This document shows, one piece after another, positions 28,997 to 44,918 of a stretch of DNA of 64,000 nucleotides. The translations under genes were made by a program, and so were the position numbers. The notes below the pieces were generated by a model. The model had not been told where the DNA came from. It searched no databases and worked only from the letters and a program-made list of their open reading frames with translations. The stretch is from positions 3,348,001 through 3,412,000 of the forward strand of contig NZ_CP107575.1 in NCBI RefSeq assembly GCF_025854375.1, given 5' to 3'. The stretch is from Glutamicibacter sp. JL.03c (GTDB taxonomy: Bacteria > Actinomycetota > Actinomycetes > Actinomycetales > Micrococcaceae). The stretch's first letter is position 1. Every line of letters starts with the position of its first letter.

Positions 28997-29056
28997 GCTT
29001 CTCCCCTCGGACCCTGCCTTTTGGGATCAGCCTACACAATCACCGCTGGCCGGTGG

Positions 29057-30286
29057 CTACTTCGAGGCGCCGATGGCCCAGATCCGCGGCAGCTCGGCCC
29101 CGTTGACCGCCACATCGCCGATCAGCCGCGCCTTGAACACCCACGGATTGTGGTTGCCCGCGGTGCGCGCATTGCGCCAATGCCGGTCCAGGTTCTTCGA
29201 CACGCTCGTGGCCGAGGCGGCCAGCGCATCAAAGGCATGGGTGATGGAGTTGAGCACCAGCGGGGTGAGCACCACTTGGGCCTGCGCGCTGGCCAGCTCG
29301 GCGGCGTCATTGGCCGCCTCGTCCTCGTCCACGGAAATCTCGCCCGCCTGCAGGGCCAGCGCCGTCTCGTAAGCTCCTTGGAGTGACTGGGACACGCGCT
29401 CCACGGTTCCCGCCGCAGCAAAGGCAGCCGCCGAAACCTCACCAATCACCTGCAACAGCTGCGGATCTTCGGCAGCGACATTGGCCGCCGCGTGGCTGAA
29501 GGTGCGCCTGCGAGCCTTCAGCTCTGCAGCGAAGTCGCGTTCGGCAGCTTTAGCTGACCCGGCGAGCACCGCTAACAGTACTTGCTGATAGAAAGCGGTC
29601 TGGTACTTGAAGCGGGTATCGAAGTCGATCAGATCCTCTTCGGCCACAATCGCATCGGTGAAGGTCGAGGTCCCGGTGCCGGTGGTGCGCTGGCCAAAAC
29701 CGTCCCAGTCATCGGCCAATTCCACGCCAGGCTGGTGGCGGTTGACCGCGGCGATCACGCGCTTGCCGGTATCGGTGCGCTCCGCGTAGGTATCCAGCCA
29801 GTCGGCAAAGATGGAACCGGTGGAATAGTACTTGGTGCCGTTGATCCGGAACCCACCTTCCCCATTCGGGGTGACCTTGGTGATCACGTCCCCGACCTTC
29901 ACCGTACCTACCTCGGTCCAGGAGTTGCCGACCAGCTCGCCGGCCACGAAGCGTGCCAGCCACTTATCCCGGCCCGCCCCGGGGGCAGCGATCAGCCGAT
30001 CTTCCACGAAGGCGAAGTGGGCGCGCAACGCCTGGGCGATATTTGAGTCAGCGGCCGCCAAATCAACAAAGAGCTCAAAGAGCTCCGGCAGGGTGGCGCC
30101 CGCGCCGCCATGGGACACCGGCACGCGCACCGCCCCGAAACCGGCGGCAGCCAGGTCGGCAATCTGCTGGTAGGGCAACTCGCCACTGCGGTCGCGTTCG
30201 GCAGCGCCCTCGGCAATCTGTTCAAAGAGTGGCGCGAAGCGGGCCTTGAGTTGATTCAGTCGATTATCGGTAGTCAATAAAGTCAT
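29057..30286 (-). CDS. DszC/SfnB-like flavoprotein monooxygenase (second)
   Basis: This 409-residue acyl-CoA-dehydrogenase-fold protein resembles DszC and SfnB, which use reduced flavin to oxygenate organosulfur compounds. Visible features are an N-terminal helical domain (PYQQIADLAAAGFGAVRVP), a central beta domain with FRINGTKYYSTGSIFADWL and a C-terminal bundle with the DRHWRNARTAGNHNP signature, which in DszC-type enzymes replaces the acyl-CoA dehydrogenase catalytic loop. ATG 30286 is preferred over the adjacent GTG. It follows its paralogue by 27 bases under the same SAM riboswitch. The substrate is unknown. Confidence 0.85.
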   Translation of the reverse strand: MTLLTTDNRLNQLKARFAPLFEQIAEGAAERDRSGELPYQQIADLAAAGFGAVRVPVSHGGAGATLPELFELFVDLAAADSNIAQALRAHFAFVEDRLIAAPGAGRDKWLARFVAGELVGNSWTEVGTVKVGDVITKVTPNGEGGFRINGTKYYSTGSIFADWLDTYAERTDTGKRVIAAVNRHQPGVELADDWDGFGQRTTGTGTSTFTDAIVAEEDLIDFDTRFKYQTAFYQQVLLAVLAGSAKAAERDFAAELKARRRTFSHAAANVAAEDPQLLQVIGEVSAAAFAAAGTVERVSQSLQGAYETALALQAGEISVDEDEAANDAAELASAQAQVVLTPLVLNSITHAFDALAASATSVSKNLDRHWRNARTAGNHNPWVFKARLIGDVAVNGAELPRIWAIGASK

Positions 30287-30313
30287 CACAGGATCCTGTC
30301 CGTAGAAAAGTTC

Positions 30314-31540
30314 TTAGGTGTACAGCGAGAGCGGCTGGGACTCCCCGCGCAGGAAGTAGGCGCCGACTTCGATCTTCTTGTAGTCCACCGGGTCATGCAG
30401 GGAGTGGGTGCGCACATTGCGCCAGAACAGGTCCAGGCCCACCGAGTTGGCGGTGGAGGACGAACCGGTGACTTCGAAAATGCGGTTGGCCACCTCGACA
30501 CCGACCTCGGTGGAGACCACCTTGGCTTCGGCAATGTCCACGGCCAGCGCCGCGCGCTCGGGCTGGGTGACGTCCCCGCCCTTGGCAAGTAGCGCATCGA
30601 ATTTGCGTCCCAGCTTTTCGGTGAGCGCCGCTACCGCTGCGGTGCGCGCCTTCAGCTCGCCCACGGTGCGTTGGAAGATCGGATCCTGCGAGTAGGTCTC
30701 GGCCTGCGAGAACAGCCACGCGTTCTTGCGACCAAGCAGAATCTGCTTGCCACGCGCCAGCGCGCCCTCTGCAATGCCCAGATAGAAGTTGGCAAACGCC
30801 AGTTGGATGCCAGGGGTGAGTAGTGTCGAGACTGGTTCCTCGGTCACCTCGCCGAGCAGATCCGTCGGCTCAATACGCACGTTGTGATACTTCAGCGAGT
30901 TCGAAGCGCTCAGGCGCTGACCCAGGTAGTCCCAGTCATCGACAATTTCCAGGCCCTCACGGTTCCTATCAATGATGAAGGCCAGAACCTGACCCTTGCG
31001 TTCACCTTCAGTGACCTCGGCATTGATGACGATGACCTCGCCGACCCCGGAGCCCGTGGAGAAACGCTTGGAGCCATTGAGCCGGAATCCATCGCCTTCC
31101 GGAATCAGGGTCAGTGTCGGGTCGACAGGGTTGACCGAGTCGCCCCACAGCCAACCGCCTTCCACGGTGCGGGTCCACCATTCGGCTTGGGTTTCCGGTG
31201 CCCCGTAGAAAGCGATGCCCGACTGGTTCACGTAGTGGTAGGCCAGCAGCTGGGAAATAGAGCCATCGGCGGCAGCAAGAATACGAACCACCTCAAAAGC
31301 AGTTTCCCAGTGAGCTCCCGCTCCCCCGAACTGCGCTGGAACCAACAGGTTCAGCAGGCCAGCGTCGCGCAGCAGCTGCACTTCGGCAAAAGGCTGGGCG
31401 TTCTTGCGGTCGCGCTCCAGGGCATCGGCGGCCAGCTGGTCGGCAACTTTCCGGGCTGCTGCGCGCCACTGCGCGAGTTCTGCTTCATCGGCGGTGCCGG
31501 TGTATGGCACACGCGGCAGCTGGGTGCTCAGTACGGTCAT
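30314..31540 (-). CDS. DszC/SfnB-like flavoprotein monooxygenase (first)
   Basis: This 408-residue protein is a paralogue of the next gene, with LLRDAGLLNLLVPAQFGGAG, the beta-domain motif FRLNGSKRFSTGSGVGEV and the C-terminal LFWRNVRTHSLHDPVDYK signature of flavin-dependent sulfur monooxygenases. ATG 31540 follows AGGAG at 8 bases; an in-frame ATG 21 bases upstream is less likely. A SAM riboswitch lies in its leader, so the gene should be expressed when S-adenosylmethionine is scarce. No flavin reductase, which such enzymes need, is encoded nearby. Confidence 0.87.
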   Translation of the reverse strand: MTVLSTQLPRVPYTGTADEAELAQWRAAARKVADQLAADALERDRKNAQPFAEVQLLRDAGLLNLLVPAQFGGAGAHWETAFEVVRILAAADGSISQLLAYHYVNQSGIAFYGAPETQAEWWTRTVEGGWLWGDSVNPVDPTLTLIPEGDGFRLNGSKRFSTGSGVGEVIVINAEVTEGERKGQVLAFIIDRNREGLEIVDDWDYLGQRLSASNSLKYHNVRIEPTDLLGEVTEEPVSTLLTPGIQLAFANFYLGIAEGALARGKQILLGRKNAWLFSQAETYSQDPIFQRTVGELKARTAAVAALTEKLGRKFDALLAKGGDVTQPERAALAVDIAEAKVVSTEVGVEVANRIFEVTGSSSTANSVGLDLFWRNVRTHSLHDPVDYKKIEVGAYFLRGESQPLSLYT

Positions 31541-31594
31541 CTTCGTTCTCCTCATCTTCATGGATTCCGAAGGATGCAGAAAGATTCTGCGAAT

Positions 31595-31679
31595 CCATCG
31601 AACCTGGCGTTAGCACTTACTGCGGAAGGCAGGCTTGCTGCGGCGTCGCGGAGCCAGGTCTCTCAGCCGCTCTGGATGG
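31595..31679 (-). ncRNA. SAM-I (S-box) type riboswitch
   Basis: On the minus strand the RNA starts with CCAUCCAGAG and ends with CCAGGUUCGAUGG, closing the P1 helix. Between them are the S-box core segments AGAGCGGCTGAGAGAC and CTGGCTC, then GACGCCGCAGCAA and GTGCTAACGCC, which correspond to the conserved GAG, GCAA and kink-turn-like parts of SAM-I. About 55 bases separate it from the monooxygenase start. There is no T-rich terminator, so control is probably at translation. A second copy lies at 37977-38061. Confidence 0.88.
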
Positions 31680-31760
31680 TTTGCCCTACCAGTGAAGCAT
31701 CGGGGCCTGCCCGTTGGCAGTGACGGCGTCACAGGGCGGAACATCGTCATGTATCGACAT

Positions 31761-31784
31761 TTTCGCGGCCCTGAAGCCGCGAAA
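31761..31784. terminator. Hairpin after the LLM monooxygenase gene
   Basis: TTTCGCGGC (31761-31769) pairs perfectly with GCCGCGAAA (31776-31784) around a 6-base loop. It follows the minus-strand LLM gene stop and precedes riboswitch 1. There is no T run, so termination would be weak; a transcript reading through to the DszC-like genes remains possible. Confidence 0.45.
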
Positions 31785-31789
31785 GAATC

Positions 31790-31807
31790 CGTCATATTTC
31801 CTCATAT
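31790..31807 (-). promoter_or_regulatory. Conserved 18-bp element upstream of riboswitch 1
   Basis: CGTCATATTTCCTCATAT (plus strand) recurs with one mismatch at 38193-38210, in both cases about 110-130 bases before a SAM riboswitch. It contains the inverted repeat CATAT-N6-ATATG when one flanking base is added. It may be a binding site for a sulfur regulator acting on both transcripts. Confidence 0.5.
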
Positions 31808-31808
31808 G

Positions 31809-33245
31809 TCACGGTGCGCCCAATACCGCTTCAGGGGTTTGGCTGGCCTTCGCATCGGCCGCCGAGGCCTTGCCCGCATAGGCTCCGCGGTAGGCCGCTG
31901 CCGGGTGGTGCCCAGCCACCCGCGTGGTGCCAGGCTCGGTCAGGTACTCGCGCAGGGTATTGCCTTCGTATCCTGCCCAGGTCCGCCCGCGCTTGCGCAG
32001 CTCCGGGACCACCAGATCGGTGAACTGCTCGAAGGAGCCGGGGGTGATGGCGTAGGCCAGGTTGATCCCGTCCAGCCCGGATTCATCCACCCAGCGCTCG
32101 ATTTCATCGGCCACGGTCTGAGCCGAGCCCACCAGCACCGGCCCGATGCCACCCACCCCGAGGTAGTCGGCAATGGCATTCGGGGTCCACTTCTGCTGGG
32201 GGTTCGCGGTAGTGAAAATCGACACCGCCGAGCGGGCCGCATTGGTTTCCAGGTACTGCAGCTCCTCATCCGGCGCGTACTGGCTCAGATCCAGCCCGGA
32301 CCAGCCGCCGTAGAAGGCCATGGCGCCCTCGCGCGAGGCATAGGACTGGTATTCGCGGTAGAGCTTCTCGGCTTGGGCATCCGAGTCGGCCACCACGGTG
32401 GTCATCAGCGCGTAGATCTTGGCCGCATCCCGGGGCCTGCCGACCAGTTCGAATTCGTCGCGGATCGCGTCGGTCTGCCGACGGGTGACCGCGGTGTTGA
32501 TCGAGTTCAGGAAGATGCCCTCGGCATGCTGGGCGCCGAAGCGCCGGCCGCGGGAAGACGCGCCGGCTTGGAAGATCGCCGGGGTGCGCTGGATGGAGGG
32601 CTCGGAGAGGTGGATGCCGGGCACGGTGAAGTACTCGCCGTGATGGTTGATCGGATGCACCTTGGAAGGATCGGTGTAGACGCCGCGTTCGCGGTCCTTG
32701 AGCACCGCGCCTTCCTCCCAGGAGCCTTCCCAGAGCTTGTAGACCACGTCCATGAATTCATCGGCGATGTCGTAGCGGGCATCGTGATCCAGCTGCCGGG
32801 TCATGCCCAGGTTGCGGGCCGCCGACTCCAGGTAGCTGGTCACTACATTCCAGCCGATGCGCCCGCGGGTGAGGTGATCCAGCGAGGAGAACTTCCGGGC
32901 CAAGGCGTAGGGCTGCTCGTAGGTCAGCGCGCTGGTCACCGCGAAGCCGAGGTTTTTCGTGGCCGCGGCCATGGCGGAAACCTGCATAAAGGGATCGTTC
33001 AGCGGCACCTGGTCGGCATCGAGCAGCGCAGGCCCGCTGGAGTTCTGGTACACGTCATAGATGCCCAGCACATCGGCCAGGAACAACGCGTCGAATCCAC
33101 CGCGCTCCAGGGTCTTGGCCAGATCAACCCAGTAGTCAAGGGTGTTGTACTCATCGGCCCTATTCTGCGGATGCCGCCACAGCCCCGGGCTTTGGTGGCT
33201 GACGCAGGTCATGTCAAAGGCGTTCAGGTGGATGCGCTGGCTCAT
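31809..33245 (-). CDS. DszA/SnaA/NtaA-like FMN-dependent monooxygenase (LLM class)
   Basis: This 478-residue flavin-dependent monooxygenase belongs to the NtaA/SnaA/DszA group. Motifs are LNAFDMTCVSHQSPGLWRHP at the N-terminus, TRGRIGWNVVTSYLESAARN in the barrel, and PAIFQAGASSRGRRFGAQHAE, which shapes the FMN phosphate site. Relatives split nitrilotriacetate, dibenzothiophene sulfone or dimethyl sulfide. The start overlaps the stop of the permease gene as ATGA, so it is made together with the ABC importer, implying that the imported compound is its substrate. Reduced FMN must come from elsewhere. Confidence 0.88.
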   Translation of the reverse strand: MSQRIHLNAFDMTCVSHQSPGLWRHPQNRADEYNTLDYWVDLAKTLERGGFDALFLADVLGIYDVYQNSSGPALLDADQVPLNDPFMQVSAMAAATKNLGFAVTSALTYEQPYALARKFSSLDHLTRGRIGWNVVTSYLESAARNLGMTRQLDHDARYDIADEFMDVVYKLWEGSWEEGAVLKDRERGVYTDPSKVHPINHHGEYFTVPGIHLSEPSIQRTPAIFQAGASSRGRRFGAQHAEGIFLNSINTAVTRRQTDAIRDEFELVGRPRDAAKIYALMTTVVADSDAQAEKLYREYQSYASREGAMAFYGGWSGLDLSQYAPDEELQYLETNAARSAVSIFTTANPQQKWTPNAIADYLGVGGIGPVLVGSAQTVADEIERWVDESGLDGINLAYAITPGSFEQFTDLVVPELRKRGRTWAGYEGNTLREYLTEPGTTRVAGHHPAAAYRGAYAGKASAADAKASQTPEAVLGAP

Positions 33246-34348
33246 GAGTTGCTGCTTCCCTTTGCGGTGGTGGTCGGTGCTTGGCGCTTTGCTGTGCGCA
33301 GGAGCGCGAAAATGCCGGTTGCCGGCTGCCCCTTGGCCCGCCCGAGCACCACGGCGGCGAGCAGGATCGCCAGCAGCACCAGCCCGCGGGCCAGGTCCTG
33401 CCAGAAGAAGGACAGGCCGATCAGGTTCAGCCCGTTATCCAGCAGGCCGAAGATCACCACGCCGATCAGTGTTCCGCCCACGGACACCCGTCCGTAGCGG
33501 CTGATGGTTGCCCCGATGAAGACCGCTCCGATGGCATCCATCAGATAGGCCTGGCCGCTGCCCGGAACGTAGCCGTTGGAGCGTGCGGCCAGCACCACTC
33601 CGGCGAATCCGGCAATGACCGCGCACAGCAGGTACGCGCTGGCAATCAGCGTAGTGATCCGCAGCCCCGAGATCTTCGCGGCGCTGGGCTGCTCGCCGGC
33701 CATGGTCAGCGTGCGCCCATAACGGGTGATGCCCAGCAGCAAAGCCACCACCACGGCGATGGATGCGGCGTTGATGATGGCGGCATCGATGTCCAGGAAG
33801 TAGCCGCGCCCGATCACGGCAAAACCATCGGGCACCAGTGGCGCCGAGAGGTAGATCGGCGCGCCTCCGCTGGTGAGCAGCTGCTGCACGCTGGTGCCGA
33901 CAAACCAGACGCTCAGCGTGGCCAGGAAGGCAGGGATCCGCAGGAGAACGATCAAGAGCGCATTCACCAGCCCCACGGCCAAGGCAAAAAGCAATCCGCC
34001 GGCCACAGCCACCCACGCACGATACCCGTCGTGGATCAGCCAGGCGCTGGCCAGGGCGCCCAAGTCGAGGGCCACGCCGATCGACAGGTCAATGCCGCCG
34101 GCCCGCACCACCAGGGTCAGGCCAAGGGCAACCAGCGCCAGCAGCGCTACCTGCCCCAGGATTCCCACGAGGTTTCCCGCTGTGAAGAACACCGGGCTGA
34201 GCACCGAGAAAACGATGAGGATCAGGGCCAAAGTTCCAGGCGCCACCAGCCGCGACGCCTGGAAGGAGCCGCGCTTCTTGGCGCTCTTGGCGGTTGGAGA
34301 TTCAGGGGCTGGGGCCGCTGGCGCGGCAAGAGTCGGGGCAGTGCTCAT
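33242..34348 (-). CDS. Ribose-type ABC transporter permease (second)
   Basis: This 368-residue protein is an RbsC-like permease with about nine hydrophobic segments and the RbsC motifs ALGLTLVVRAGGIDLSIG and DAIGAVFIGATISRYGRVSV. An Ala/Pro-rich N-terminal tail of about 35 residues precedes the first helix. ATG 34348 follows GGAAGGAAG and overlaps the upstream permease stop. Ribose-type permeases usually carry sugars or sugar-like compounds; here the linkage to sulfur enzymes suggests a sulfur-bearing ligand. Confidence 0.9.
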   Translation of the reverse strand: MSTAPTLAAPAAPAPESPTAKSAKKRGSFQASRLVAPGTLALILIVFSVLSPVFFTAGNLVGILGQVALLALVALGLTLVVRAGGIDLSIGVALDLGALASAWLIHDGYRAWVAVAGGLLFALAVGLVNALLIVLLRIPAFLATLSVWFVGTSVQQLLTSGGAPIYLSAPLVPDGFAVIGRGYFLDIDAAIINAASIAVVVALLLGITRYGRTLTMAGEQPSAAKISGLRITTLIASAYLLCAVIAGFAGVVLAARSNGYVPGSGQAYLMDAIGAVFIGATISRYGRVSVGGTLIGVVIFGLLDNGLNLIGLSFFWQDLARGLVLLAILLAAVVLGRAKGQPATGIFALLRTAKRQAPTTTAKGSSNS

Positions 34349-35346
34349 CGGTTCTTCCTTCCGCGCAGGGTCACGCTGGCCAGAACCAGCAAGATCAGCA
34401 GGCCCTTGGCAGCGCCCACCCACTGGCTGGCCACGCCGAGCAGGGTCAGCCCGTTATCCAGGGCGGCGACGAACACGGCGGCCAGCACGGTGCCGGCAAC
34501 GCTGACCAGTCGCCGGCGGGAGAAGATCATGGACATGTAGGCCACCAGGATGATGTCCAGCAGAATCTGCGTTCCAATGCCGGGAACCGCGGCCGAGAGC
34601 CGGGCCACCAACAGCGTCCCGGCCAGGCCCGCCAAGGCCGAGCTGAGCACATAGCTGGCCAGCCGGTACCTGCGGGGATCAAGCCCTGCCACCTGGGCGG
34701 CGGTGGGATTCTGGCCGACAGCATAGGAATTCACTCCCCAGCTGGTCTTGCCATAGACCCACCAGCCCGCAGCCCCGATGAGGATCATCAGCCAGGCCGC
34801 CAGCGGGATCCCGAGAAAAACGCTGCCGCGGGCAGCCTCGAAGAAGCCGCCGGATACGGCGATCTTCAGGTTCTGGCTGAAGACCAGTTCCAGCGAAGCG
34901 GCCACGCCCATGGTGGCCAAGGTCGCCAGCAGCGGGCGCAGCCCCAAGGTCACCGAGATCCCGTTGATCACGCCGATCGCGGTAGCCACCAGCACCCCGT
35001 AGAGCACCGCTATCAAGCCCGGGGTGCCGGCGGCGGCAGCCAGCGCAGTCACGGTGCCGGCCAGTCCTGCCACCGCTGAGGTGGACAGGTCGATGCCGCC
35101 GTTCAGCACATCATCGCCGCCGGCGATAATCACGATCGCGAGCCCCACCCCGGCAATGCCGAAGACCGAAGCCTGGGTCAGGATGGTGGCGATATTCGAT
35201 GCCGTCAGGAAAAATGGCGAGCCGACAACGAAGAGCAGCAGGACCGCGGCGATCCCGGCGTAGCCGATCCAGGCGGCCAGGCCCGGTTTCGTACCGCGCG
35301 CGCTGCGCGCGCTCGCCTCGTTGGCGGGAGCAATGGCGGTGCTCAT
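34345..35346 (-). CDS. Ribose-type ABC transporter permease (first)
   Basis: This 333-residue RbsC-like permease has ITVIIAGG-like features: GLAIVIIAGGDDVLNGGIDLS in the second helix region and DIILVAYMSMIFSRRRLVSV near the C-terminus. It probably forms a heterodimer with the second permease. It overlaps the ATPase stop and the next start by four bases each, so the genes are tightly coupled. About nine membrane helices are expected. Confidence 0.9.
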   Translation of the reverse strand: MSTAIAPANEASARSARGTKPGLAAWIGYAGIAAVLLLFVVGSPFFLTASNIATILTQASVFGIAGVGLAIVIIAGGDDVLNGGIDLSTSAVAGLAGTVTALAAAAGTPGLIAVLYGVLVATAIGVINGISVTLGLRPLLATLATMGVAASLELVFSQNLKIAVSGGFFEAARGSVFLGIPLAAWLMILIGAAGWWVYGKTSWGVNSYAVGQNPTAAQVAGLDPRRYRLASYVLSSALAGLAGTLLVARLSAAVPGIGTQILLDIILVAYMSMIFSRRRLVSVAGTVLAAVFVAALDNGLTLLGVASQWVGAAKGLLILLVLASVTLRGRKNR

Positions 35347-36881
35347 GCGTTCACCTCTTCTCGTGGTGTTCCGGTTCCTTGGCCGCTGGAGGCCAACTGC
35401 AAGATGCGTTCGGTGCTCGCTTCGGCGCAGGACAGCTCGGCGATGACCCGGCCTCGATACAACACCAGCACCCGATCGGCCATCCCCGCGACTTCTTCCA
35501 GGTCAACGCTGACCATCAATGCGGCCGCGCCGTCGTCGACCAGCTGGTTGATCTGCGCGTAGATCTGCGCGCGGCTGCCCACGTCCACGCCCGAGGTGGG
35601 CTGGTCCAGCACCAGCACATCGGATCCCCTGGCCAGCCAGCGGGCCAGCACGGCTTTCTGCTGGTTGCCGCCGGAGAGGCCCGCAGCCACGGCTTCGGGA
35701 TCACCCGGGCGGATATCCAGGCGCTGCACCAGTTCGCTGGCCGCCGCACGCTCCTTGCGCGCGTCGAGCAGCCCGAGCCGGCGTCCGAGTGTGCGCAGGC
35801 TGGCCGCGGCGATATTCTCGCGCACGGTGTTGCGCAGGAAGATGCCATCGCGATGCCGGTTCGATGGGACATAGGCGCCGGCGCGGGCGACAAAGTCCGC
35901 CGCCGATTTCACCGGGCGGCCATGCAATACCACGGTTCCGGCGTGCGGATGGTTCCCGGTCACCGCATCGGCCAGCACCTCGATCCCCGATCCCACCAGC
36001 CCGGTCACTGCCACGATTTCCCCGGGTGCCACCGAGAAATTGATTTCCTCCAGCTTCCCGGCGACCGCCACACCCGAGAGCTCCAGGGCAGGCTCCCCCG
36101 GCGTGGGAGGCGCCTCGCGCTTCTGATGCGAGAACTCGTCGACCTGGCTGCCCAGCATCAAGCCGATGACATCCTCGATGCTGTCACCGGCGGCGAAACT
36201 GGCGTCGCCGGCATTCTTGCCGTTGCGCAGCACCGTGATCCGGTCGGCAATCTGCTGCAGTTCCTGCAGATAGTGGGAGATGAAGATGAGGCCCACCCCG
36301 CGATCACGCAGATGCCGGATCGTGCCGAAGAGCTGTTCCACCTCGTCATTGGCCAGCGGCGCGGTCGGCTCATCGAGGATCAGCACCTTGGGCTCTGCCA
36401 GTACCGCGCGGGCGATCTGGATCAGCTGCTGCTGGGCAACGCTCAGCTCGTCAACGAAGACCGAGGCATCCAGTTCCTGGCCGGTGGTGCGCAGGATATC
36501 GGCTCGCGCCGACTCCTGCACGGTGCGCTCATGGCGCCAAAGCCCGCGGCTTGTGCTCGTGCCCAGGTACAGCTGCTCGGCTACGGTCAGGCGTCCGGCC
36601 AGGTGGCGGTCCTGGTGGATCACCTCGATGCCCAGAGCTTCTGCATCGGCGGGGCGGCGGATCTGCACGGCTTTGCCAGCCAGTTCGATGTGGCCGGTAT
36701 CCAGGGTGTACAGGCCCGTGAGAATCTTGATCAGCGTGGACTTGCCGGCACCGTTTTCGCCCACGAGGCCCAGGACTTCCCCGGCTCGAAGCTGCAGGTG
36801 GACATCATCGAGCACCTTGACGTTGCCAAAAGATTTATTGATCCCGGCCATGCTCAGCAAGTCATTAGATGCCGTTGTCAT
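35343..36881 (-). CDS. Ribose-type ABC transporter ATP-binding protein, two ABC domains
   Basis: This 512-residue protein has two ABC domains as in RbsA. The first has Walker A GENGAGKSTLIKIL, the signature-like LSVAQQQLIQIARAV and Walker B VLILDEPTAPL. The second lacks a standard Walker A (GLVGSGIEV) but keeps LSGGNQQKAVLARWLA and VLVLDQPTSGVD. That asymmetry is normal in sugar importers. The ATG at 36881 lies inside the end of the binding-protein gene (17-base overlap). Confidence 0.92.
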   Translation of the reverse strand: MTTASNDLLSMAGINKSFGNVKVLDDVHLQLRAGEVLGLVGENGAGKSTLIKILTGLYTLDTGHIELAGKAVQIRRPADAEALGIEVIHQDRHLAGRLTVAEQLYLGTSTSRGLWRHERTVQESARADILRTTGQELDASVFVDELSVAQQQLIQIARAVLAEPKVLILDEPTAPLANDEVEQLFGTIRHLRDRGVGLIFISHYLQELQQIADRITVLRNGKNAGDASFAAGDSIEDVIGLMLGSQVDEFSHQKREAPPTPGEPALELSGVAVAGKLEEINFSVAPGEIVAVTGLVGSGIEVLADAVTGNHPHAGTVVLHGRPVKSAADFVARAGAYVPSNRHRDGIFLRNTVRENIAAASLRTLGRRLGLLDARKERAAASELVQRLDIRPGDPEAVAAGLSGGNQQKAVLARWLARGSDVLVLDQPTSGVDVGSRAQIYAQINQLVDDGAAALMVSVDLEEVAGMADRVLVLYRGRVIAELSCAEASTERILQLASSGQGTGTPREEVNA

Positions 36882-37905
36882 TGCGCACCTGATTCACGTT
36901 GTCCTTGTCGACAAAAATCGGCTCGGCATAGCTGGTGCTCGGGACCTGATCGGTTTGCCCATCGAGGAACAGGGCGATATTGCTGGCCGAGGTCGCGGCG
37001 ATCTGCTTGGTGGGCTGGGCGACGGTGAACTGGTAGGAGCTGTTCGGGTCGGCGATCAAATCCAGGGCTCCGGGCTCCGCATCGACGCCATAGAGCTTGA
37101 TGTCATTATCGGTGGGGTCGATGGCCTGCGCCGCTCCGATCAGCGGCATGTCCCAGCACGACCAGATCGCGTCGACTTCGCCCTCGGGCAGCCTGCGCAG
37201 CTGGTCCTGGATCTGGTTCTTGGCATCTTCGATGGTGCCCTCATACTTGTCCTGGAGTTCAGGGGTGATCTTCTCGATATTCGGGTAGTCCTCGAGCACC
37301 AGGTTCAGGCTGTTGTAGCGGATCCGGCACGGCGTCACGCCGGGGAAGCCGTTGAAGACCAGGATCTTGCCCTTGCCGTGCAGGTCTTCTGCCATGGTGC
37401 GAGCCAGCGTGGTGCCCACATTCCAGTTGTCGCTGGTGACGTTGTTCTTCGAGTATTCGCTCTGGAAGTCGATGGTGAACAGCGGAATGCCTGCGGCGTC
37501 CACCTTGGCCAGGGCAGGGGTGAGCGTCTGCGCATCACCCAGGATCACCACGATGGCATCGGGCGACTGGGTAATCAGGTTTTCCACGTCGGAAACGTGC
37601 TTCTCGTCCTTGGCTTCGGCCTGGGTAGCGATGACCTCGCCGCCGAGCTCCTTGATGCGTTCCTGGATCTGCTGGTAGACCACCCGCGAGTAATCGTGCA
37701 GGATGTCCTTGGCCGCGATGCCGACTTTCTTGCCTTCCAGCGAAGGAACATCCTCCAGCTGCTGCTCGGCTTGCGGGTTGCTGCTTTGCGCCGCGACCGG
37801 AGCCGCTTGGGGGCGCGGTTCTTTCAACGAGCAGCCCGTGAGCAGCGTGGTGGCAGCCAGGGCAACAGCCACAAGCTTCAAGGTGTGCGGGCGAGTACGA
37901 GTCAT
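36865..37905 (-). CDS. Ribose-type substrate-binding lipoprotein
   Basis: This 346-residue protein has a lipoprotein signal ending LATTLLTGC-like (TTLLTGCSL, Cys25) and a periplasmic-binding-protein type I fold with GKKVGIAAKDILHDYSRVVYQ divided over the first unit, PDAIVVILGDAQ, IPLFTIDFQSEYS and IWSCWDMPLIGAAQA. ATG 37905 has GAGAGGG upstream; an upstream in-frame stretch runs through the riboswitch and is not coding. First gene after SAM riboswitch 2. Ribose-family receptors bind furanoses and similar molecules, so methylthioribose-like or sulfonated sugars are possible ligands; this is inference. Confidence 0.88.
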   Translation of the reverse strand: MTRTRPHTLKLVAVALAATTLLTGCSLKEPRPQAAPVAAQSSNPQAEQQLEDVPSLEGKKVGIAAKDILHDYSRVVYQQIQERIKELGGEVIATQAEAKDEKHVSDVENLITQSPDAIVVILGDAQTLTPALAKVDAAGIPLFTIDFQSEYSKNNVTSDNWNVGTTLARTMAEDLHGKGKILVFNGFPGVTPCRIRYNSLNLVLEDYPNIEKITPELQDKYEGTIEDAKNQIQDQLRRLPEGEVDAIWSCWDMPLIGAAQAIDPTDNDIKLYGVDAEPGALDLIADPNSSYQFTVAQPTKQIAATSASNIALFLDGQTDQVPSTSYAEPIFVDKDNVNQVRNDNGI

Positions 37906-37976
37906 GCCGTCCCTCTCTGAGACATCTAGGACCGAGGGATCCCGCACAGAAGTCCTTGCTTCTGAACCCGGGAGCT

Positions 37977-38061
37977 CCATCGAACCTGGCTTTAGCACTA
38001 TCTGCAGGAGGCAAACTTGCTGCGGCGTCATGGAGCCAGGTCTCTCAGCCGCTCTGGATGG
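37977..38061 (-). ncRNA. SAM-I (S-box) type riboswitch, second copy
   Basis: The minus-strand RNA has the same P1 ends (CCAUCCAGAG ... CCAGGUUCGAUGG) and the same core as the copy at 31595-31679, differing mainly in P3/P4 loops (GCAAGTTTGCCTCCTGCAG against GCAAGCCTGCCTTCCGCAG). It is 72 bases before the binding-protein start. A small AGAAG/CTTCT hairpin follows, but no T run, so the output is probably translational. Confidence 0.88.
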
Positions 38062-38192
38062 GGTGTCATTCGAGTCAAGCATCGATCAGCCACGTTGGCT
38101 AAGCCGGCGTCATGGGAGGGAACCCTGCGTCAGATCTCGTCACAAATCCGGGGTTTTTGACAGCTTCAAGCCCCGTGAATGCGTGGACAGCG

Positions 38193-38210
38193 CGTCATAT
38201 TTCCGCATAT
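38193..38210 (-). promoter_or_regulatory. Conserved 18-bp element upstream of riboswitch 2
   Basis: CGTCATATTTCCGCATAT is 17/18 identical to the element at 31790-31807 and lies 132 bases before the 5' end of riboswitch 2 on the minus strand. The shared position suggests a common regulator or promoter part. Confidence 0.5.
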
Positions 38211-38347
38211 TACGATCCCCGGTTCGCGTTCCCCGGTTCGCATTTGCCTGGCTGCTTGAGCCGGGCAAGCCGTGCACGATGCGGGTACTGCCCAATATCA
38301 CAATCGCCTAGACTGAATCCAAGGACACCGATCGAGAGGACATCCGC

Positions 38348-38791: not shown

Positions 38792-40153
38792 CTAGAGCAG
38801 AACTGCCCCGAGGATCCAGACGGTGGCAAACGCCGCGGTCCCCTGGATCGCGGTGGCCACGCTGAGGGTCTTGTACGCGGTGATCACCGGGATCCGGCTG
38901 AGCTGCGACACCACCCAGAAGTACGAATCGTTCGCATGCGAAACGACCATCGCACCGGCGCCGACCGCCAGCACGCTGAGCACCATGCCCAGCTCGGAGT
39001 CCAGCCCCAGCGAGCCGAGCATCGGGGCGACCAGCGCGGAGGTGGTCACCATCGATACCGTGGACGATCCCTGCGCCGACTTCAATGCGGCGGCAATCAG
39101 GAATGGCACCGCCAGCCCCAGCCCCAGGCCGCTCAAGGAACCTGAGAGGAATTCGGTCAGCTTGGAGGAGGCCAGCACGGCGCCGAAGGCCGCCCCGGCT
39201 CCGGTGATCAGCAGGATCGGAGCGGCAGTGCGCACCGCCTCATTCATCTGGTCATTGAAATCGGAGAGCTTCTTATCCCCGCTCAGCAGCGGTGTGGCCG
39301 ACAGCAGGCCGAAGATCAGCGCGATCACCGGGGTGCCGATGAAGGAGAGCACCTCCACCAGCGTTCCGCCACCCAGTGGCGCCGAGGGCAGCTTGGCAAT
39401 GGAGGCGGCGCAGATCAAAACCAGCGGCACCAGAATCGGCAGGAAAGCCAGGGCCGGATGCGGCAGCTTTCCGAAGCTGGCGCGCAGCTGCTCGTAGTCC
39501 AGGCCTGCCAGGTCGTTTTCGTCTTCCGAGGCCATCGGAGTCCACTGGGACTTGTTGAACCGGCTGGCGTAGGCCAGGCCGGCCAACGCGGAGATGGCAG
39601 CTACCGGCAGGCCCACGGCGATGATCAGCCCGAGGTTATCGGCAATGCCGATGCTCTCGGCCGCGGCCAACGGCCCGGGGGTCGGCGGGACCATGGTGTG
39701 CGTGGCATACAGGCCGGTCATCAGCGCGACCGATGTCGCCAGCGCCGAAACGCCGGTGCGCAACGTGATGGCCTTGCGCAGCGAGTTCAGCACCACGTAG
39801 CCGGAGTCGCAGAAGACCGGGATCGATACGATGTAGCCGATGATGCTCAGTGTCAGGTTCGGGAACCGGGTGCCCAGGACCTTGATCAGGGCGTCGGCCA
39901 TCGAGATGGCGGCCCCCGAGCGCTCCAGGATGATGCCGATCATCGTGCCGAAGAGGATCACCAAGCCGATATTTCCCATGGTGTTGCCGAACGCCGTGGT
40001 GACGGTGCTGGCCACTTCGGCCAAGGGGATCTTGTAGGCGAAGGCGGCAAGAATGGCGGCGCCGATCAGCGCAAGGAAGGGGCTGATTTTCCAGCGCGCT
40101 GTCACCAGCACAATGGCGACTACGAGGATCAAGAGAATAATGAGTTCGTACAC
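38792..40153 (-). CDS. GntP family permease (gluconate/glycerate type)
   Basis: This 453-residue transporter has about twelve hydrophobic segments and GntP hallmarks: FGNTMGNIGLVILFGTMIG, VFCDSGYVVLNSLRKAI, HTMVPPTPGPLAAAE and SHANDSYFWVVSQL. It would import gluconate or a similar sugar acid by cation symport. Start is GTG 40153, preceded by AAAGGAG. A CdaR regulator and a glycerate kinase encoded nearby suggest glycerate as substrate; this is inference from context. Confidence 0.9.
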   Translation of the reverse strand: MYELIILLILVVAIVLVTARWKISPFLALIGAAILAAFAYKIPLAEVASTVTTAFGNTMGNIGLVILFGTMIGIILERSGAAISMADALIKVLGTRFPNLTLSIIGYIVSIPVFCDSGYVVLNSLRKAITLRTGVSALATSVALMTGLYATHTMVPPTPGPLAAAESIGIADNLGLIIAVGLPVAAISALAGLAYASRFNKSQWTPMASEDENDLAGLDYEQLRASFGKLPHPALAFLPILVPLVLICAASIAKLPSAPLGGGTLVEVLSFIGTPVIALIFGLLSATPLLSGDKKLSDFNDQMNEAVRTAAPILLITGAGAAFGAVLASSKLTEFLSGSLSGLGLGLAVPFLIAAALKSAQGSSTVSMVTTSALVAPMLGSLGLDSELGMVLSVLAVGAGAMVVSHANDSYFWVVSQLSRIPVITAYKTLSVATAIQGTAAFATVWILGAVLL

Positions 40154-40497
40154 GGTTGGTTGGCTCCTTTGCCACGATCTGCGGTGCGTTCTCCAGCAAA
40201 GCGGCTCAAGCTTTGGCGGTTCGAACAGTCGGCAATGAGCCAATACTAGGAAACGGGCAAGAGATCACCTATGGGCATGTGCCCGGAATTCCCAGGGCCC
40301 AAAGAGTGAAAAGTGTGCACGGGGTCCAAAGAATGCCTTCGGGTGAGCATCAAAACCGCACTGATACCCACATGTCGTTCAAGCAGCCATCGAGATCGTA
40401 GCCCGCAAAGGCGACTCCGGATGCTGGATTCCTACGAGCGCGTTCGCGACGGAGCGCGGACCGAACATGAATGAGACCGCTCTGGCAGTGACGGCTC
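40154..40497. other. Intergenic region upstream of the GntP gene
   Basis: These 344 bases contain no supported gene. A short inverted repeat, GGGCA-TG-TGCCC (40273-40284), lies 120 bases before the permease start and could be an operator. The stretch before 40498, where an antitoxin gene would be expected next to yoeB, has no recognisable antitoxin sequence. Confidence 0.45.
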
Positions 40498-40632
40498 ATG
40501 CGTCTACCGTGGGACGAGTCCGCGTGGGAGGACGGCGAATATTGGCAGCAGACAGATCGCAAAATCCGCACGCGGATAAACATGTTGACCGATGCCTGCC
40601 TGCTTGATGCCATCAACGGCAACGGGAAGCCC
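40498..40632 (+). pseudogene. Truncated YoeB/Txe toxin gene
   Basis: Translation from ATG 40498 gives AWEDGEYWQQTDRKIRTRIN and then NGNGKP, which is the N-terminal half of a YoeB-type mRNA interferase (usual form AWEDYLYWQQTDKKILKRIN). Intact toxins are about 85 residues. After GKP the sequence no longer resembles the family, and the end of the CdaR gene begins within 40 bases, so the catalytic C-terminal half (with its Arg and His) is missing. No antitoxin is left. The toxin cannot be active. Confidence 0.8.
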
Positions 40633-40669
40633 GTTATCACTACCCGGATCCCGCTTTGGAGAACTGCAG

Positions 40670-41731
40670 CTAGAAGACCTGCAGTTCATCCAGCGCGATC
40701 CGCGCGTACACAGCATGCTGCAATCGCAGCGATTCGGCGGCCTGGCGAATATCAGCACCCGTCACCTGGCCGATTCGCTCCAGCCTTTGCACCAGCGTAT
40801 TGCGGTGGATATGCAAGGATTCCGCGGCCTCGGACATGGAGGAAGCGGCAGCGACCACCAATAGCGTCCTGGCCTGCTCCTGGTTCAAAACCTGCGCGCG
40901 GGCGGCCAGATACTTCAGGCTCCGCGCCGGAGTGCGGGCCACAGCCACCGCAATATCCTGGTTCCAGATTCCTTCGAGTTCTCGCCGAGGAAGCATCGCC
41001 GGGCGCCCCGCCAACGTCCGCATCGCTTCGGCCTGGGCCAACAGCTCGCCCGCATCCTCGGCGGCCGGCCCGATCAGATAACGGTCATTGGCATTCGGGG
41101 CATCCGCCGCCGGCTCATCGCTGGCCTTTCGCAGTCGCCAATGAGCACCAAACAGCCCCACCCAGCAGGTGCGCGCCCCGTCGAGCGCCGGCTGTTCCAG
41201 CAACGGATCCTGTTCGCTGCGCGGCAGCCACAGCTCAAGTTGCAACGGCGCACGCAGCCCGTGCGCATCCAGGGTTCTCTCGATCACGTCGGCCGCCACA
41301 TGCCCGGCAAGCAGCGCTGAAATGATATCCCGGGCCTCGGCGGCCCGGCGAGCGCTCCGCGAGTGCTCGCGTTCCTGGGTGAACAGCAATTGCACGGTCA
41401 GCGCGATCAGGTCAGCCAGCGGCTCGACCTCATGCGGTGCGCCGGTCACGCCAACTGCTCCGCACAACCGCTCGTTGAGTATCAGCGGAAGGTTCACCCC
41501 GGGCTGGGTGCCTGCGGTGTCATCGGCCTGGGCAACCCGGATGATCTGATTGCGGCGGATCGCTTCGACGCTGCCTTCATGCAGGGTGCCGATGCGCGCG
41601 GCATCGCTGGAGGCGATGATGATTCCATGGGCATTCATGATGTTCACGTGGCGATCGATCGTCGGCGCAATGGTATCGACGACCTTTTGCGCGAGCCCGC
41701 TGGCCAGTCGAGGTTGCTCCTTTTCGCTCAT
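40670..41731 (-). CDS. CdaR family transcriptional regulator (sugar diacid/glycerate type)
   Basis: This 353-residue regulator has an N-terminal sugar-diacid recognition domain (MNAHGIIIASSDAARIGTLHEG and PLILNERLCGAVGVTGAP) and a C-terminal PucR-type helix-turn-helix with AAESLHIHRNTLVQRLERI. CdaR activates glucarate, galactarate and glycerate genes in E. coli. It lies next to a GntP permease and near a glycerate kinase gene, so it probably senses glycerate and turns on both. Its 3' end abuts the yoeB remnant. Confidence 0.9.
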   Translation of the reverse strand: MSEKEQPRLASGLAQKVVDTIAPTIDRHVNIMNAHGIIIASSDAARIGTLHEGSVEAIRRNQIIRVAQADDTAGTQPGVNLPLILNERLCGAVGVTGAPHEVEPLADLIALTVQLLFTQEREHSRSARRAAEARDIISALLAGHVAADVIERTLDAHGLRAPLQLELWLPRSEQDPLLEQPALDGARTCWVGLFGAHWRLRKASDEPAADAPNANDRYLIGPAAEDAGELLAQAEAMRTLAGRPAMLPRRELEGIWNQDIAVAVARTPARSLKYLAARAQVLNQEQARTLLVVAAASSMSEAAESLHIHRNTLVQRLERIGQVTGADIRQAAESLRLQHAVYARIALDELQVF

Positions 41732-41868
41732 GGATTCATCCTAGCCGTCACCTCGCCCGGGGAACTGCCACTTTTCAACATGGCACGCTCGGGGACGTGA
41801 GGTGCTTCACGTTGAACTTCAGTGATGCTAGGCTCGCCCCAGTCAAGAATCGCGATGAAAGGTCCACC

Positions 41869-42063
41869 ATGAGTTCGGCGATCAGCTACTTAACGGGCGG
41901 CTTCCTAGTCTCCTTGCTCGTAACGCTCAACATGACATGGAACCAGCGTTTGCCCGGCATGGTCGGCCCGGCCCTCATCGTGGCGTGCCTTGCAGGGCTC
42001 GTCGCATGCCGGCTCTACACCGCTCGAAACCTGCCCCGCCGGCACGATCCAAGGGAAACCTAG
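41869..42063 (+). CDS. Small two-helix membrane protein
   Basis: This 64-residue ORF has hydrophobic segments at residues about 7-23 and 34-52 and a basic C-terminus (RNLPRRHDPRET). ATG 41869 has AAAGG upstream. Its TAG shares the tetranucleotide CTAG with the stop of the opposing lipoprotein gene. I do not recognise a family. A longer upstream extension is possible but less likely. Confidence 0.55.
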   Translation: MSSAISYLTGGFLVSLLVTLNMTWNQRLPGMVGPALIVACLAGLVACRLYTARNLPRRHDPRET

Positions 42064-42596
42064 GACGCCTCCCGCTCCTGCTGAATCGACCTGACCGTGC
42101 TGTTGGCATCAGGCGCAAACGCAAACAACTTGCCATCGGCAACGTGGACCCAGAATCGGCCACATAAATCCGTGGTCCGGTTTTCGGCGCCCTGAGGCCA
42201 CCAATCGGCGTCCAGGGTTCGGGTGGTGGAGATTTCATTCGCTTCAAAAGACTTGGTACGCGCATCCGAGGCGTAGGCCTTCTTGAGTTCGGCTTCGCTC
42301 GGATGTCCCGTGCTCTTGATCGGGACGCATTGTTCGCCTGGCACTTCGCCGGAGTAGTCCATCACGAAAATGCGTTCCATTCCCGTATTGCGCTGCATGA
42401 GTTTCACATCGGTTCCGCCCTGGGGCACCCAGGTTGGCAACAATTCTGCTGATACTGCTTCTTCTGAGGTCTTCGCGGTCTTTTCGGTGGATTCATCGTA
42501 CTTGTCCACGAGCAGATCCGACACGGAGCAACCGGAGAGGACAAGGGACAAGGGAGCTGCCATCAACACGGTGGCGACGTACTTTTTCTTCATCAT
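42060..42596 (-). CDS. Putative secreted lipoprotein
   Basis: This 178-residue protein has a lipoprotein signal MMKKKYVATVLMAAPLSL followed by the lipobox LSGC, then a soluble domain with three further cysteines of which two (GEQCVPI and TDLCGRF) could form a disulfide. No domain is recognised. ATG 42596 is chosen because the signal peptide begins there. The stop codons of this gene and its convergent neighbour overlap. Confidence 0.75.
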   Translation of the reverse strand: MMKKKYVATVLMAAPLSLVLSGCSVSDLLVDKYDESTEKTAKTSEEAVSAELLPTWVPQGGTDVKLMQRNTGMERIFVMDYSGEVPGEQCVPIKSTGHPSEAELKKAYASDARTKSFEANEISTTRTLDADWWPQGAENRTTDLCGRFWVHVADGKLFAFAPDANSTVRSIQQEREAS

Positions 42597-42754
42597 GATT
42601 CCATCGTAGAAATCGGTCGCCACTTGGCACATCGTCTTCTCGTCGCAAGTGGGCCGGCGGCAGTTCATCCCCACGGTGGAGCAGCCGAAAGCTTTTCTCC
42701 ACCCGCACCACCTAAACTGGCCTCAACAACCGATCCGTCTGGGAGCCAGAAGCC

Positions 42755-44763: not shown

Positions 44764-44918
44764 GTCCCCCAGCATAGAGAGCCCCGGGGCACAGAACTAT
44801 GGGCCGATGACCGCATTTATCCGGGACGCTCCCACGTTGATATGTGCACCGCGCCTAGTCATGTGAAACGCGAAGCCCAGCCAAAGGATCGGCACAGGAA
44901 CCGTGGCTAGCGTAGGAA

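What the first reader, a model, noticed from the sequence alone, without database searches (positions are those of the whole stretch)
28997..38210. SAM-riboswitch-controlled import and oxidative desulfurisation system
Two SAM-I-type riboswitches lead a ribose-type ABC importer coupled to a DszA/NtaA-like monooxygenase and two DszC/SfnB-like monooxygenases. Overlaps (17 bases, then three ATGA) tie the importer to the LLM enzyme. A sugar-type importer under methionine control suggests a sulfur-bearing sugar or nucleoside ligand (for example a methylthioribose or sulfone compound). I know of no described pathway with this set. The need for a flavin reductase encoded elsewhere is implied.
Basis: partly seen in the sequence, partly recalled or inferred. 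Interest (0 to 1): 0.8.

Follow-up and report, generated by a model that had tools for sequence, protein, structure and literature searches.

The report
SAM-gated import and oxidation of sulfur-sugar
A soil-type bacterium and its relatives carry an operon, led by RNA switches that sense a methionine product, that pairs a sugar-type importer with enzymes that probably cut sulfur out of a sugar-like molecule; the parts are known kinds, the combination looks undescribed, and the molecule is not yet identified.

Summary
On the minus strand two SAM-I riboswitches (56.4 and 52.9 bits) lead a ribose-class (CUT2) ABC importer joined by overlaps to a DmoA-like flavin monooxygenase, then two SfnB/MsuC/DszC-like monooxygenases. 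It is not chance: in 11 of 11 Micrococcaceae loci with this importer the LLM and sfnB1 are there too, with a SAM-I aptamer before the importer (three aptamers just under Rfam's cut-off). Of 120 family genomes 12 hold the LLM orthologue: nine are exactly those with this importer; the other three have an unrelated carbohydrate importer (CUT1) in its place, led by SAM-IV or SAM-I. Two unrelated sugar importers on one enzyme set favour a polyhydroxylated sulfur compound. One of the binding protein's two closest solved relatives was solved with allitol, and most of that pocket is kept. Best reading: scavenging of a sugar- or polyol-like organosulfur compound by oxidative C-S cleavage, shut off by SAM. 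The ligand is unproven; methylthioribose is possible, not specifically supported; sulfoquinovose is less likely. New variant of a known kind.

The parts
37974..38064 (-). SAM-I (S-box) riboswitch aptamer leading the importer-LLM operon
   Evidence: Rfam RF00162, 56.4 bits (cut-off 44.4), E 2.4e-10; before the importer in 11 of 11 Micrococcaceae loci
36865..37905 (-). CUT2 solute-binding lipoprotein (Peripla_BP_4)
   Evidence: Pfam E 1.1e-46; closest solved 3L49 and 4WT7, about 40% identity
35343..36881 (-). CUT2 double-domain ABC ATPase
   Evidence: Pfam ABC_tran, two stretches; 17-base overlap with the binding-protein gene
34345..35346 (-). CUT2 permease 1 (BPD_transp_2)
   Evidence: Pfam E 4.8e-30; ATGA overlap
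33242..34348 (-). CUT2 permease 2 (BPD_transp_2)
   Evidence: Pfam E 2e-34; start placed at the ATGA overlap
31809..33245 (-). Group C flavin (LLM, NtaA/DmoA family) monooxygenase, DmoA-like
   Evidence: TIGR03860 529 bits, cut-off 279.7; 6AK1 DmoA 614 bits
31592..31682 (-). Second SAM-I riboswitch aptamer, leading sfnB1-sfnB2
   Evidence: RF00162, 52.9 bits, E 2.5e-9; 86% identical to the first aptamer
30314..31540 (-). sfnB1: group D type flavin monooxygenase, MsuC/DszC/SfnB-like
   Evidence: TIGR04022 273.7 bits (below cut-off 430.9); 8CDA 285, MsuC 248, DszC 233 bits
29057..30283 (-). sfnB2: second, more divergent SfnB/DszC-like monooxygenase
   Evidence: TIGR04022 248.8 bits (below cut-off); thermophilic DszC 113 bits; absent from the held stretches of 7 of the 11 Micrococcaceae loci

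Best explanation
It is a sulfur-scavenging operon that is off while S-adenosylmethionine is plentiful. When SAM falls, the unliganded aptamers let the operon be expressed (the switch is inferred from the aptamer class; control is probably at translation, because no terminator-like site was found on that strand in either leader). The CUT2 importer brings in a polyhydroxylated, sugar- or polyol-like organosulfur compound. The group D type enzymes SfnB1 (and SfnB2) oxygenate sulfur (thioether to sulfoxide or sulfone, or sulfinate to sulfonate), and the group C, DmoA-like LLM oxidatively cuts a C-S bond, giving an aldehyde and a thiol, sulfinate or sulfite that enters methionine synthesis through other genes of the same SAM regulon. 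Reduced FMN comes from a reductase encoded elsewhere. Shown here: anatomy, conservation, SAM-riboswitch leaders, replacement of one sugar importer by another. Inferred: switching, sulfur in the ligand, the order of the oxidations, the products.
For: Riboswitches. Importer, LLM and sfnB1 together in 11 of 11 Micrococcaceae loci with this importer. Of 120 family genomes 12 hold the LLM at 73-100% identity (next 62%); 9 of these are exactly the 9 with the binding protein at 68-100% (next 34%); the other 3 have a CUT1 carbohydrate importer in front of the LLM, led by SAM-IV in one and SAM-I in two. On the LLM tree the three fall inside a clade of CUT2-type LLMs (0.99; their own grouping 0.84), so one sugar importer seems to have displaced another. 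L064 has sfnB1 upstream with its own SAM-I aptamer, 96% identical to the other. Own genome: 8 SAM-I sites; others lead ssuA/ssuC, sfnB+LLM, a MetNIQ-type importer+sfnB+LLM, an O-acetylhomoserine sulfhydrylase-type gene and two further Cys/Met PLP genes. Pocket: of ten 4WT7 residues named around a sorbitol modelled onto the bound allitol (PMC10318746, Tables 2-3), seven are identical and one is Phe or Tyr in 13 of 13 orthologues. No terminator-like site on the minus strand in either leader.
Against: No ligand evidence. Microbacteriaceae relatives show no SAM-I aptamer (six loci at gathering, four of them also at E up to 0.5). In 2 of 12 named loci (Frigoribacterium) no LLM orthologue is adjacent and the best in the genome is 52%. 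In L050 the importer lies on another contig than the llm-sfnB1-sfnB2 operon and beside a YihS-like sugar isomerase. 4WT7 was solved with a plain polyol, and the CUT1 proteins resemble plain sugar and polyol binders. The sfnB1 tree does not group the three CUT1-type loci, with very low support there. The Agrobacterium neighbourhood L051, which first looked like the same set, has a binding protein 85-86% identical to two rhizobial copies without sulfur genes around them, so it may be incidental.
Confidence: 0.6

Rival explanations
1. The importer carries an ordinary sugar or polyol; it shares an operon with sulfur enzymes for another reason (for example carbon needed in sulfur starvation), and the monooxygenases work on a substrate that enters otherwise.
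For: Pocket close to the allitol-binding 4WT7; L050 importer beside a YihS-like isomerase, away from the LLM operon; two rhizobial relatives without sulfur genes nearby.
Against: The LLM stands behind one of two unrelated carbohydrate importers, under a SAM riboswitch, in 12 of 12 family genomes that have it; the other SAM-led LLM/SfnB sets of the own genome lie beside Ssu-type and MetNIQ-type importers.
Confidence: 0.17
2. The ligand is an anionic sulfo-sugar such as sulfoquinovose, degraded as in the sulfo-ASMO pathway.
For: A flavin monooxygenase that cuts the C-S bond of a sugar is the logic of sulfo-ASMO (PMC12890257, passages); the CUT1 proteins of L122 and L123 find SmoF among lower-ranking hits; Arthrobacter use sulfoquinovose, though by sulfo-EMP (PMC12890257, passages).
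Against: The LLM is DmoA-like and far below the SsuD model (59 against 518 bits); no SsuD over cut-off in the genome; an Arg of the 4WT7 pocket is Ala here (an invariant Lys is next to it); SfnB/DszC-type enzymes are not part of sulfo-ASMO in the passages read.
Confidence: 0.08
3. The importer has been recruited for a small non-sugar organosulfur compound (a thioether, sulfone or amino-acid derivative), as its sister modules use Ssu-type and MetNIQ-type importers.
For: The enzyme families act on small thioethers, sulfones and sulfinates (DmoA, SfnG, MsuC; PMC8234197, passages); sister SAM-led modules in the same genome lie beside non-sugar importers.
Against: Two unrelated carbohydrate importer classes at the same place; polyol-type contacts kept in the pocket.
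Confidence: 0.1
4. The enzymes do not act on sulfur: the LLM is a relative of riboflavin lyase or of a dehalogenase and breaks another bond.
For: HcbA1 (328 bits) and riboflavin lyase (313 bits) are solved relatives; L122 lies beside riboflavin-synthesis genes.
Against: DmoA is far closer (614 bits); partner enzymes are SfnB/MsuC/DszC-like; SAM riboswitch control.
Confidence: 0.05

Closest known systems
Pseudomonas sfn/msu dimethyl sulfone pathway (SfnG-MsuC-MsuD; PMC8234197, passages)
   Same: Group C LLM that cuts C-S plus a group D acyl-CoA-dehydrogenase-fold monooxygenase that makes an S-O bond, for sulfur assimilation
   Different: Here: sugar-type importer, SAM riboswitches, DmoA-like rather than SfnG-like LLM (SfnG model 75.5 against cut-off 383 bits), no MsuD/SsuD in the operon and no SsuD over cut-off in the genome
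Dimethyl-sulfide monooxygenase DmoA (PDB 6AK1)
   Same: The LLM is its close relative, 614 bits over residues 1-468
   Different: Dimethyl sulfide should need no sugar importer; partner enzymes and regulation differ
Dsz 4S pathway (DszA/DszC)
   Same: A group D S-oxygenase with a group C C-S cleaving enzyme
   Different: LLM less like BdsA/DszA (250 bits) than like DmoA; SfnB1 below the DszC model (261 against 850 bits); importer of sugar class
B. subtilis CmoO/CmoJ S-alkylcysteine salvage (PMC10863075, abstract and passages)
   Same: Two flavoenzymes: sulfoxidation, then oxidative C-S cleavage
   Different: Both work on N-acetyl-S-alkylcysteine; no sugar importer in the passages read
5-methylthioribose transporter solute binding protein of Thermotoga lettingae (PDB 4RY8, title)
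   Same: CUT2 binding protein named for a sulfur-bearing sugar: precedent for the proposed ligand class
   Different: 20% identity, Z 26.9, no closer than many other CUT2 proteins
Agrobacterium vitis allitol-bound protein 4WT7
   Same: Best fold match (Z 33.2, 40% identity); most pocket residues kept
   Different: Asp64 to Ser and Arg89 to Ala in all 13 actinobacterial orthologues aligned

Membership tests
SAM-I riboswitch (RF00162) | Covariance-model score over Rfam's gathering score | tested here: met
   56.4 and 52.9 bits against 44.4
SAM-I riboswitch (RF00162) | Binds SAM and switches expression | not testable with these tools
   Needs in-line probing or a reporter
CUT2 carbohydrate ABC importer | Peripla_BP_4 binding protein, two BPD_transp_2 permeases, double-domain ATPase | tested here: met
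   Pfam hits of all four
NtaA/DmoA family monooxygenase (TIGR03860) | Score over the curated cut-off | tested here: met
   529.1 bits against 279.7
NtaA/DmoA family monooxygenase (TIGR03860) | FMNH2-dependent oxygenation of a substrate | not testable with these tools
   Needs an assay
SfnB (TIGR04022 equivalog) | Score over the curated cut-off (430.9 bits) | tested here: not met
   273.7 and 248.8 bits; relatives, not members by that rule
DszC (NF043015 equivalog) | Score over the curated cut-off (850 bits) | tested here: not met
   260.9 and 101.9 bits
Dsz 4S pathway | DszB-type desulfinase | not tested
   No DszB model was run; none of the seven genes is one by its family hits
Sulfo-ASMO sulfoquinovose pathway | SsuD-type (alkanesulfonate) monooxygenase | tested here: not met
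   LLM 59 bits against the SsuD cut-off 518; no SsuD over cut-off in the genome
Methylthioribose importer of the 4RY8 kind | Closest relationship to 4RY8 | tested here: inconclusive
   Z 26.9, 20% identity, tied with many CUT2 proteins
Universal methionine salvage (MTR route) | Methylthioribose kinase in the genome | tested here: not met
   TIGR01767: no match at E 0.001; the control rings in B. subtilis and E. coli

The most novel reading that the evidence does not exclude
An undescribed oxidative salvage pathway for thio-sugars or thio-polyols (of the 5-methylthioribose kind): a SAM-gated sugar importer feeds a DmoA-like C-S cleaving oxygenase and an S-oxygenase, so that sulfur lost from SAM as methylthio sugars returns to methionine without methylthioribose kinase. 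The importer is interchangeable (CUT2 or CUT1) while the enzymes and the SAM control stay.
Probability: 0.2. Interest if true: 0.8.

Novelty: new variant of a known kind. Interest (0 to 1): 0.57.

Why it matters
If true, it adds a sugar-like class of sulfur source to those that Actinobacteria take up under SAM control, and it gives a small, concrete set of proteins to test. The link made here (one enzyme set, two unrelated sugar importers, two riboswitch classes) points at the ligand class without prior knowledge of the substrate and could be applied to other DmoA/SfnB sets of unknown substrate. A methylthio-sugar ligand would show a second, oxidative way to recover the sulfur of SAM by-products.

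Tried and rejected
Chance: rejected, since the set and the aptamer recur in all 11 loci and the genes show dN/dS 0.03-0.13. Some of the 11 loci are from close species (L041/L065, L044/L066), so they are fewer than 11 independent cases.

Alphaproteobacterial spread: L051 (Agrobacterium leguminum) holds a 42-44% related importer beside LLM and two SfnB genes. I first took it for the same unit. Its binding protein keeps the Asp and Arg of the allitol binder, is 85-86% identical to the copies in L052 and L053, whose shown neighbourhoods hold no LLM or SfnB gene, and no RNA family was found in L051, L059 or L060 at E 0.3. I do not count it.

Sulfoquinovose: the YihS-like isomerase beside the importer in L050 suggested it. 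The two Gln that I recall as sulfonate contacts of YihS are His and Pro there (their role is recalled, not from a call), and among ten further proteins of that locus that I searched none looked like a sulfo-sugar gene; several are general sugar-type genes. Left as a minor rival.

Methylthioribose: kinase absent, MTA/SAH nucleosidase match below cut-off, 4RY8 not specially close. Possible, not supported in particular.

Class-wide search (394 genomes) found only the own genome at E 1e-40; uninformative, since the sample was thin and only up to five candidates per genome were scored in the rows shown.

Expression platform: folding the two leaders gave no clear switch; a possible pairing over the ribosome site of sfnB1 is weak evidence. 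Pattern scans found no minus-strand terminator-like site.

Literature: ten searches. Searches found nothing; one gave 84 papers (40 listed), 58 gave 18 (all listed), 94 gave 7, 107 gave 138 (15 listed), 108 gave 3. In these listings and in the passages read of six papers I saw none describing this set. That is not proof of absence from print.
Full report
Observation. Overlaps are 17 bases (sbp/atp, 36865-36881) and three of four bases (35343-35346, 34345-34348, 33242-33245). The window is part of a 3.59 Mb single-contig genome, of the Micrococcaceae to judge by its named relatives (family membership of the named genera is recalled). Upstream lies a separate glycerate-type cluster (GntP permease, sugar-diacid regulator, glycerate kinase); downstream a DUF202 gene and, on the other strand, a ferrochelatase gene.

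What the proteins are. The importer is of the CUT2 class (Peripla_BP_4, ABC_tran twice, BPD_transp_2 in both permeases). The LLM passes the NtaA/DmoA model and its best solved relative is DmoA (614 bits), then LadA (462), HcbA1 (328), riboflavin lyase (313), BdsA (250). SfnB1 and SfnB2 belong with SfnB, MsuC and DszC but stay below the SfnB and DszC equivalog cut-offs. By PMC8234197 (passages read) group C enzymes such as DmoA, CmoJ, BdsA and SsuD cut C-S bonds and the group D enzyme MsuC makes an S-O bond, with FMNH2 from a separate reductase. Five flavin-reductase genes (PF01613) lie elsewhere in the genome, the nearest more than 150 kb away.

SAM regulon of the same genome. There are eight SAM-I sites. 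Besides the two here they lead ssuA/ssuC (L055), a SfnB-LLM pair (L055), a MetNIQ-type importer with SfnB and LLM (L055; the Met components are below NCBIfam's cut-offs), an O-acetylhomoserine sulfhydrylase-type gene (L054) and two further Cys/Met-metabolism PLP genes (L056). For the eighth (L057) I saw only small open frames just downstream and did not identify its gene. So the window unit is the third SAM-led LLM/SfnB set of the genome, each with another importer type nearby (Ssu, MetNIQ, CUT2). A fourth LLM over cut-off lies at 361906-363165, which I did not follow.

Conservation. In 120 family genomes the binding protein has close relatives (68-100% identity) in 9, then a gap down to 34%. 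A named-genome scan gave 12 loci: six Micrococcaceae, six Microbacteriaceae. With four unnamed loci and the window that makes 11 Micrococcaceae loci, some from close species. All 11 have sbp-atp-perm1-perm2-llm and sfnB1, and all 11 have a SAM-I aptamer before sbp: 8 over Rfam's gathering score and 3 at 41.7-43.3 bits against 44.4. In L064 sfnB1 stands upstream with its own SAM-I aptamer, 96% identical to the other one. The window also has an aptamer before sfnB1, and L039 a very similar sequence (seen by eye; not listed over the cut-off). sfnB2 is found in the window, L039, L042 (106 residues only), L044, the Rathayibacter and Frigoribacterium loci, L099 and L122-L124, and not in the held stretches of L040, L041, L043 and L063-L066.

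Microbacteriaceae. Three Rathayibacter loci have the LLM and both SfnB genes divergent from the importer. Two Frigoribacterium loci have the SfnB genes but no LLM beside them (best in the genome 52%). In L050 the importer stands beside a YihS-like isomerase, while llm-sfnB1-sfnB2 form an operon on another contig. No SAM-I aptamer was found: six loci at gathering; L045, L047, L048 and L050 also at E up to 0.5.

The importer swap. The LLM in the same 120 genomes gives 12 at 73-100% identity, then 62%. Nine are exactly the nine with the CUT2 binding protein. The other three (G080, G064, G040; L122-L124) have in its place a CUT1 importer: an SBP_bac_1 protein and two BPD_transp_1 permeases (the L124 genes and the second permease of L123 and L124 by similarity). 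The three CUT1 binding proteins are 68-93% identical. L122 is led by a SAM-IV riboswitch (99.6 bits), L123 and L124 by SAM-I, with a second SAM-I before sfnB1-sfnB2 in L123 and L124. In the LLM tree the three lie inside a clade with CUT2-type LLMs (0.99); the sfnB1 tree does not group them and has very low support there. Two more distant LLMs (60-62%; L125, L126) stand under SAM-IV without either sugar importer beside them. So enzyme set and SAM control are constant while the importer changes between two unrelated carbohydrate classes. That is the best evidence for the ligand class.

The pocket. The model of the binding protein (13 sequences, mean pLDDT 76) is closest to 4WT7 (Z 33.2, rmsd 3.0, 289 aligned) and 3L49 (Z 31.9), then 28.9 and below. 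4WT7 was solved with allitol (PMC10318746, passages and section 10). That paper lists His61, Arg89, Arg187, Asp268 and Gln290 as contacts of a sorbitol modelled on the allitol backbone, and Phe63, Asp64, Asp137, Val181, Cys184 as near. By the alignments these are His70, Ala98, Arg196, Asp275, Gln297, Tyr/Phe72, Ser73, Asp146, Val190 and Cys193 here. Seven are identical and one is Phe or Tyr in 13 of 13 orthologues; Asp64 to Ser and Arg89 to Ala are the changes. An invariant Lys99 stands next to Ala98 in a loop that the model predicts poorly (pLDDT below 50 at 96-103), so the loss of charge is not certain. Three rhizobial/agrobacterial relatives keep Asp and Arg. The CUT1 proteins find 5IAI high (first for L122, second for L123), whose coordinates contain ribitol (PMC8468352, passages), at low similarity.

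Mechanism. See Best explanation. Shown: anatomy, conservation, SAM-riboswitch leaders by class, importer replacement. Inferred: switching, ligand, chemistry, products.

Verdict. A real, conserved uptake-and-oxidation unit with SAM-riboswitch leaders. The pieces are known kinds; the combination with sugar importers was not found in the papers searched. New variant of a known kind.

Noticed in passing
window 38065-38264 and 31683-31882; leaders of L039-L047, L049, L050, L063-L066, L122-L125: TGACG/CGTCA is enriched before the aptamers or start sites of this unit: 92 sites in 34 upstream regions (six of them other SAM-led genes of the own genome; two L125 rows overlap) against 12.9 expected from simple base shuffles; 20 other intergenic stretches of the own genome have 36 in 15.8 kb, 0.45 per 200 bp. 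L048, L126 and one own site have none. It also occurs in Microbacteriaceae loci without a riboswitch, so a second, protein regulator may act.
   Followed up: partly
L057 6447-6557 (own genome 1053946-1054056, minus): Eighth SAM-I site of the genome; just downstream on that strand I saw only open frames of 129 and 136 residues, not searched further.
   Followed up: partly
L122 13929-15833: The SAM-IV-led CUT1/LLM operon lies directly downstream of riboflavin-synthesis genes (lumazine synthase, RibBA), the source of the flavin such enzymes use.
   Followed up: no
L125 8726-10144 and L126 8436-9962: LLMs at 60-62% identity stand under SAM-IV riboswitches without a sugar importer beside them; in L125 a SAM-I site leads an Ssu-like importer divergently.
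   Followed up: partly
L060, L061 (Klebsiella and Pantoea plasmid records): LLM relatives (about 55%) sit with ssuD, an FAD oxidoreductase, MetNIQ-type and MFS transporters and an acyl-CoA-dehydrogenase-type or monooxygenase gene: other organosulfur clusters of unknown substrate.
   Followed up: no
L059 (Rhizobium sp. NZLR1 plasmid p4) 928-10398: A different sugar-type ABC importer lies beside two LLMs, a SfnB gene and an acyl-CoA-dehydrogenase-type gene; no RNA family was found.
   Followed up: partly
L050 14928-16403: YihS-like isomerase directly after the importer's second permease in a Microbacteriaceae genome.
   Followed up: partly
own genome 361906-363165 (L070): A fourth NtaA/DmoA-type LLM over cut-off, about 6 kb from a SAM-led LLM set.
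   Followed up: no
window 38792-44775: Neighbouring glycerate-type cluster: GntP permease, sugar-diacid regulator, glycerate kinase.
   Followed up: no
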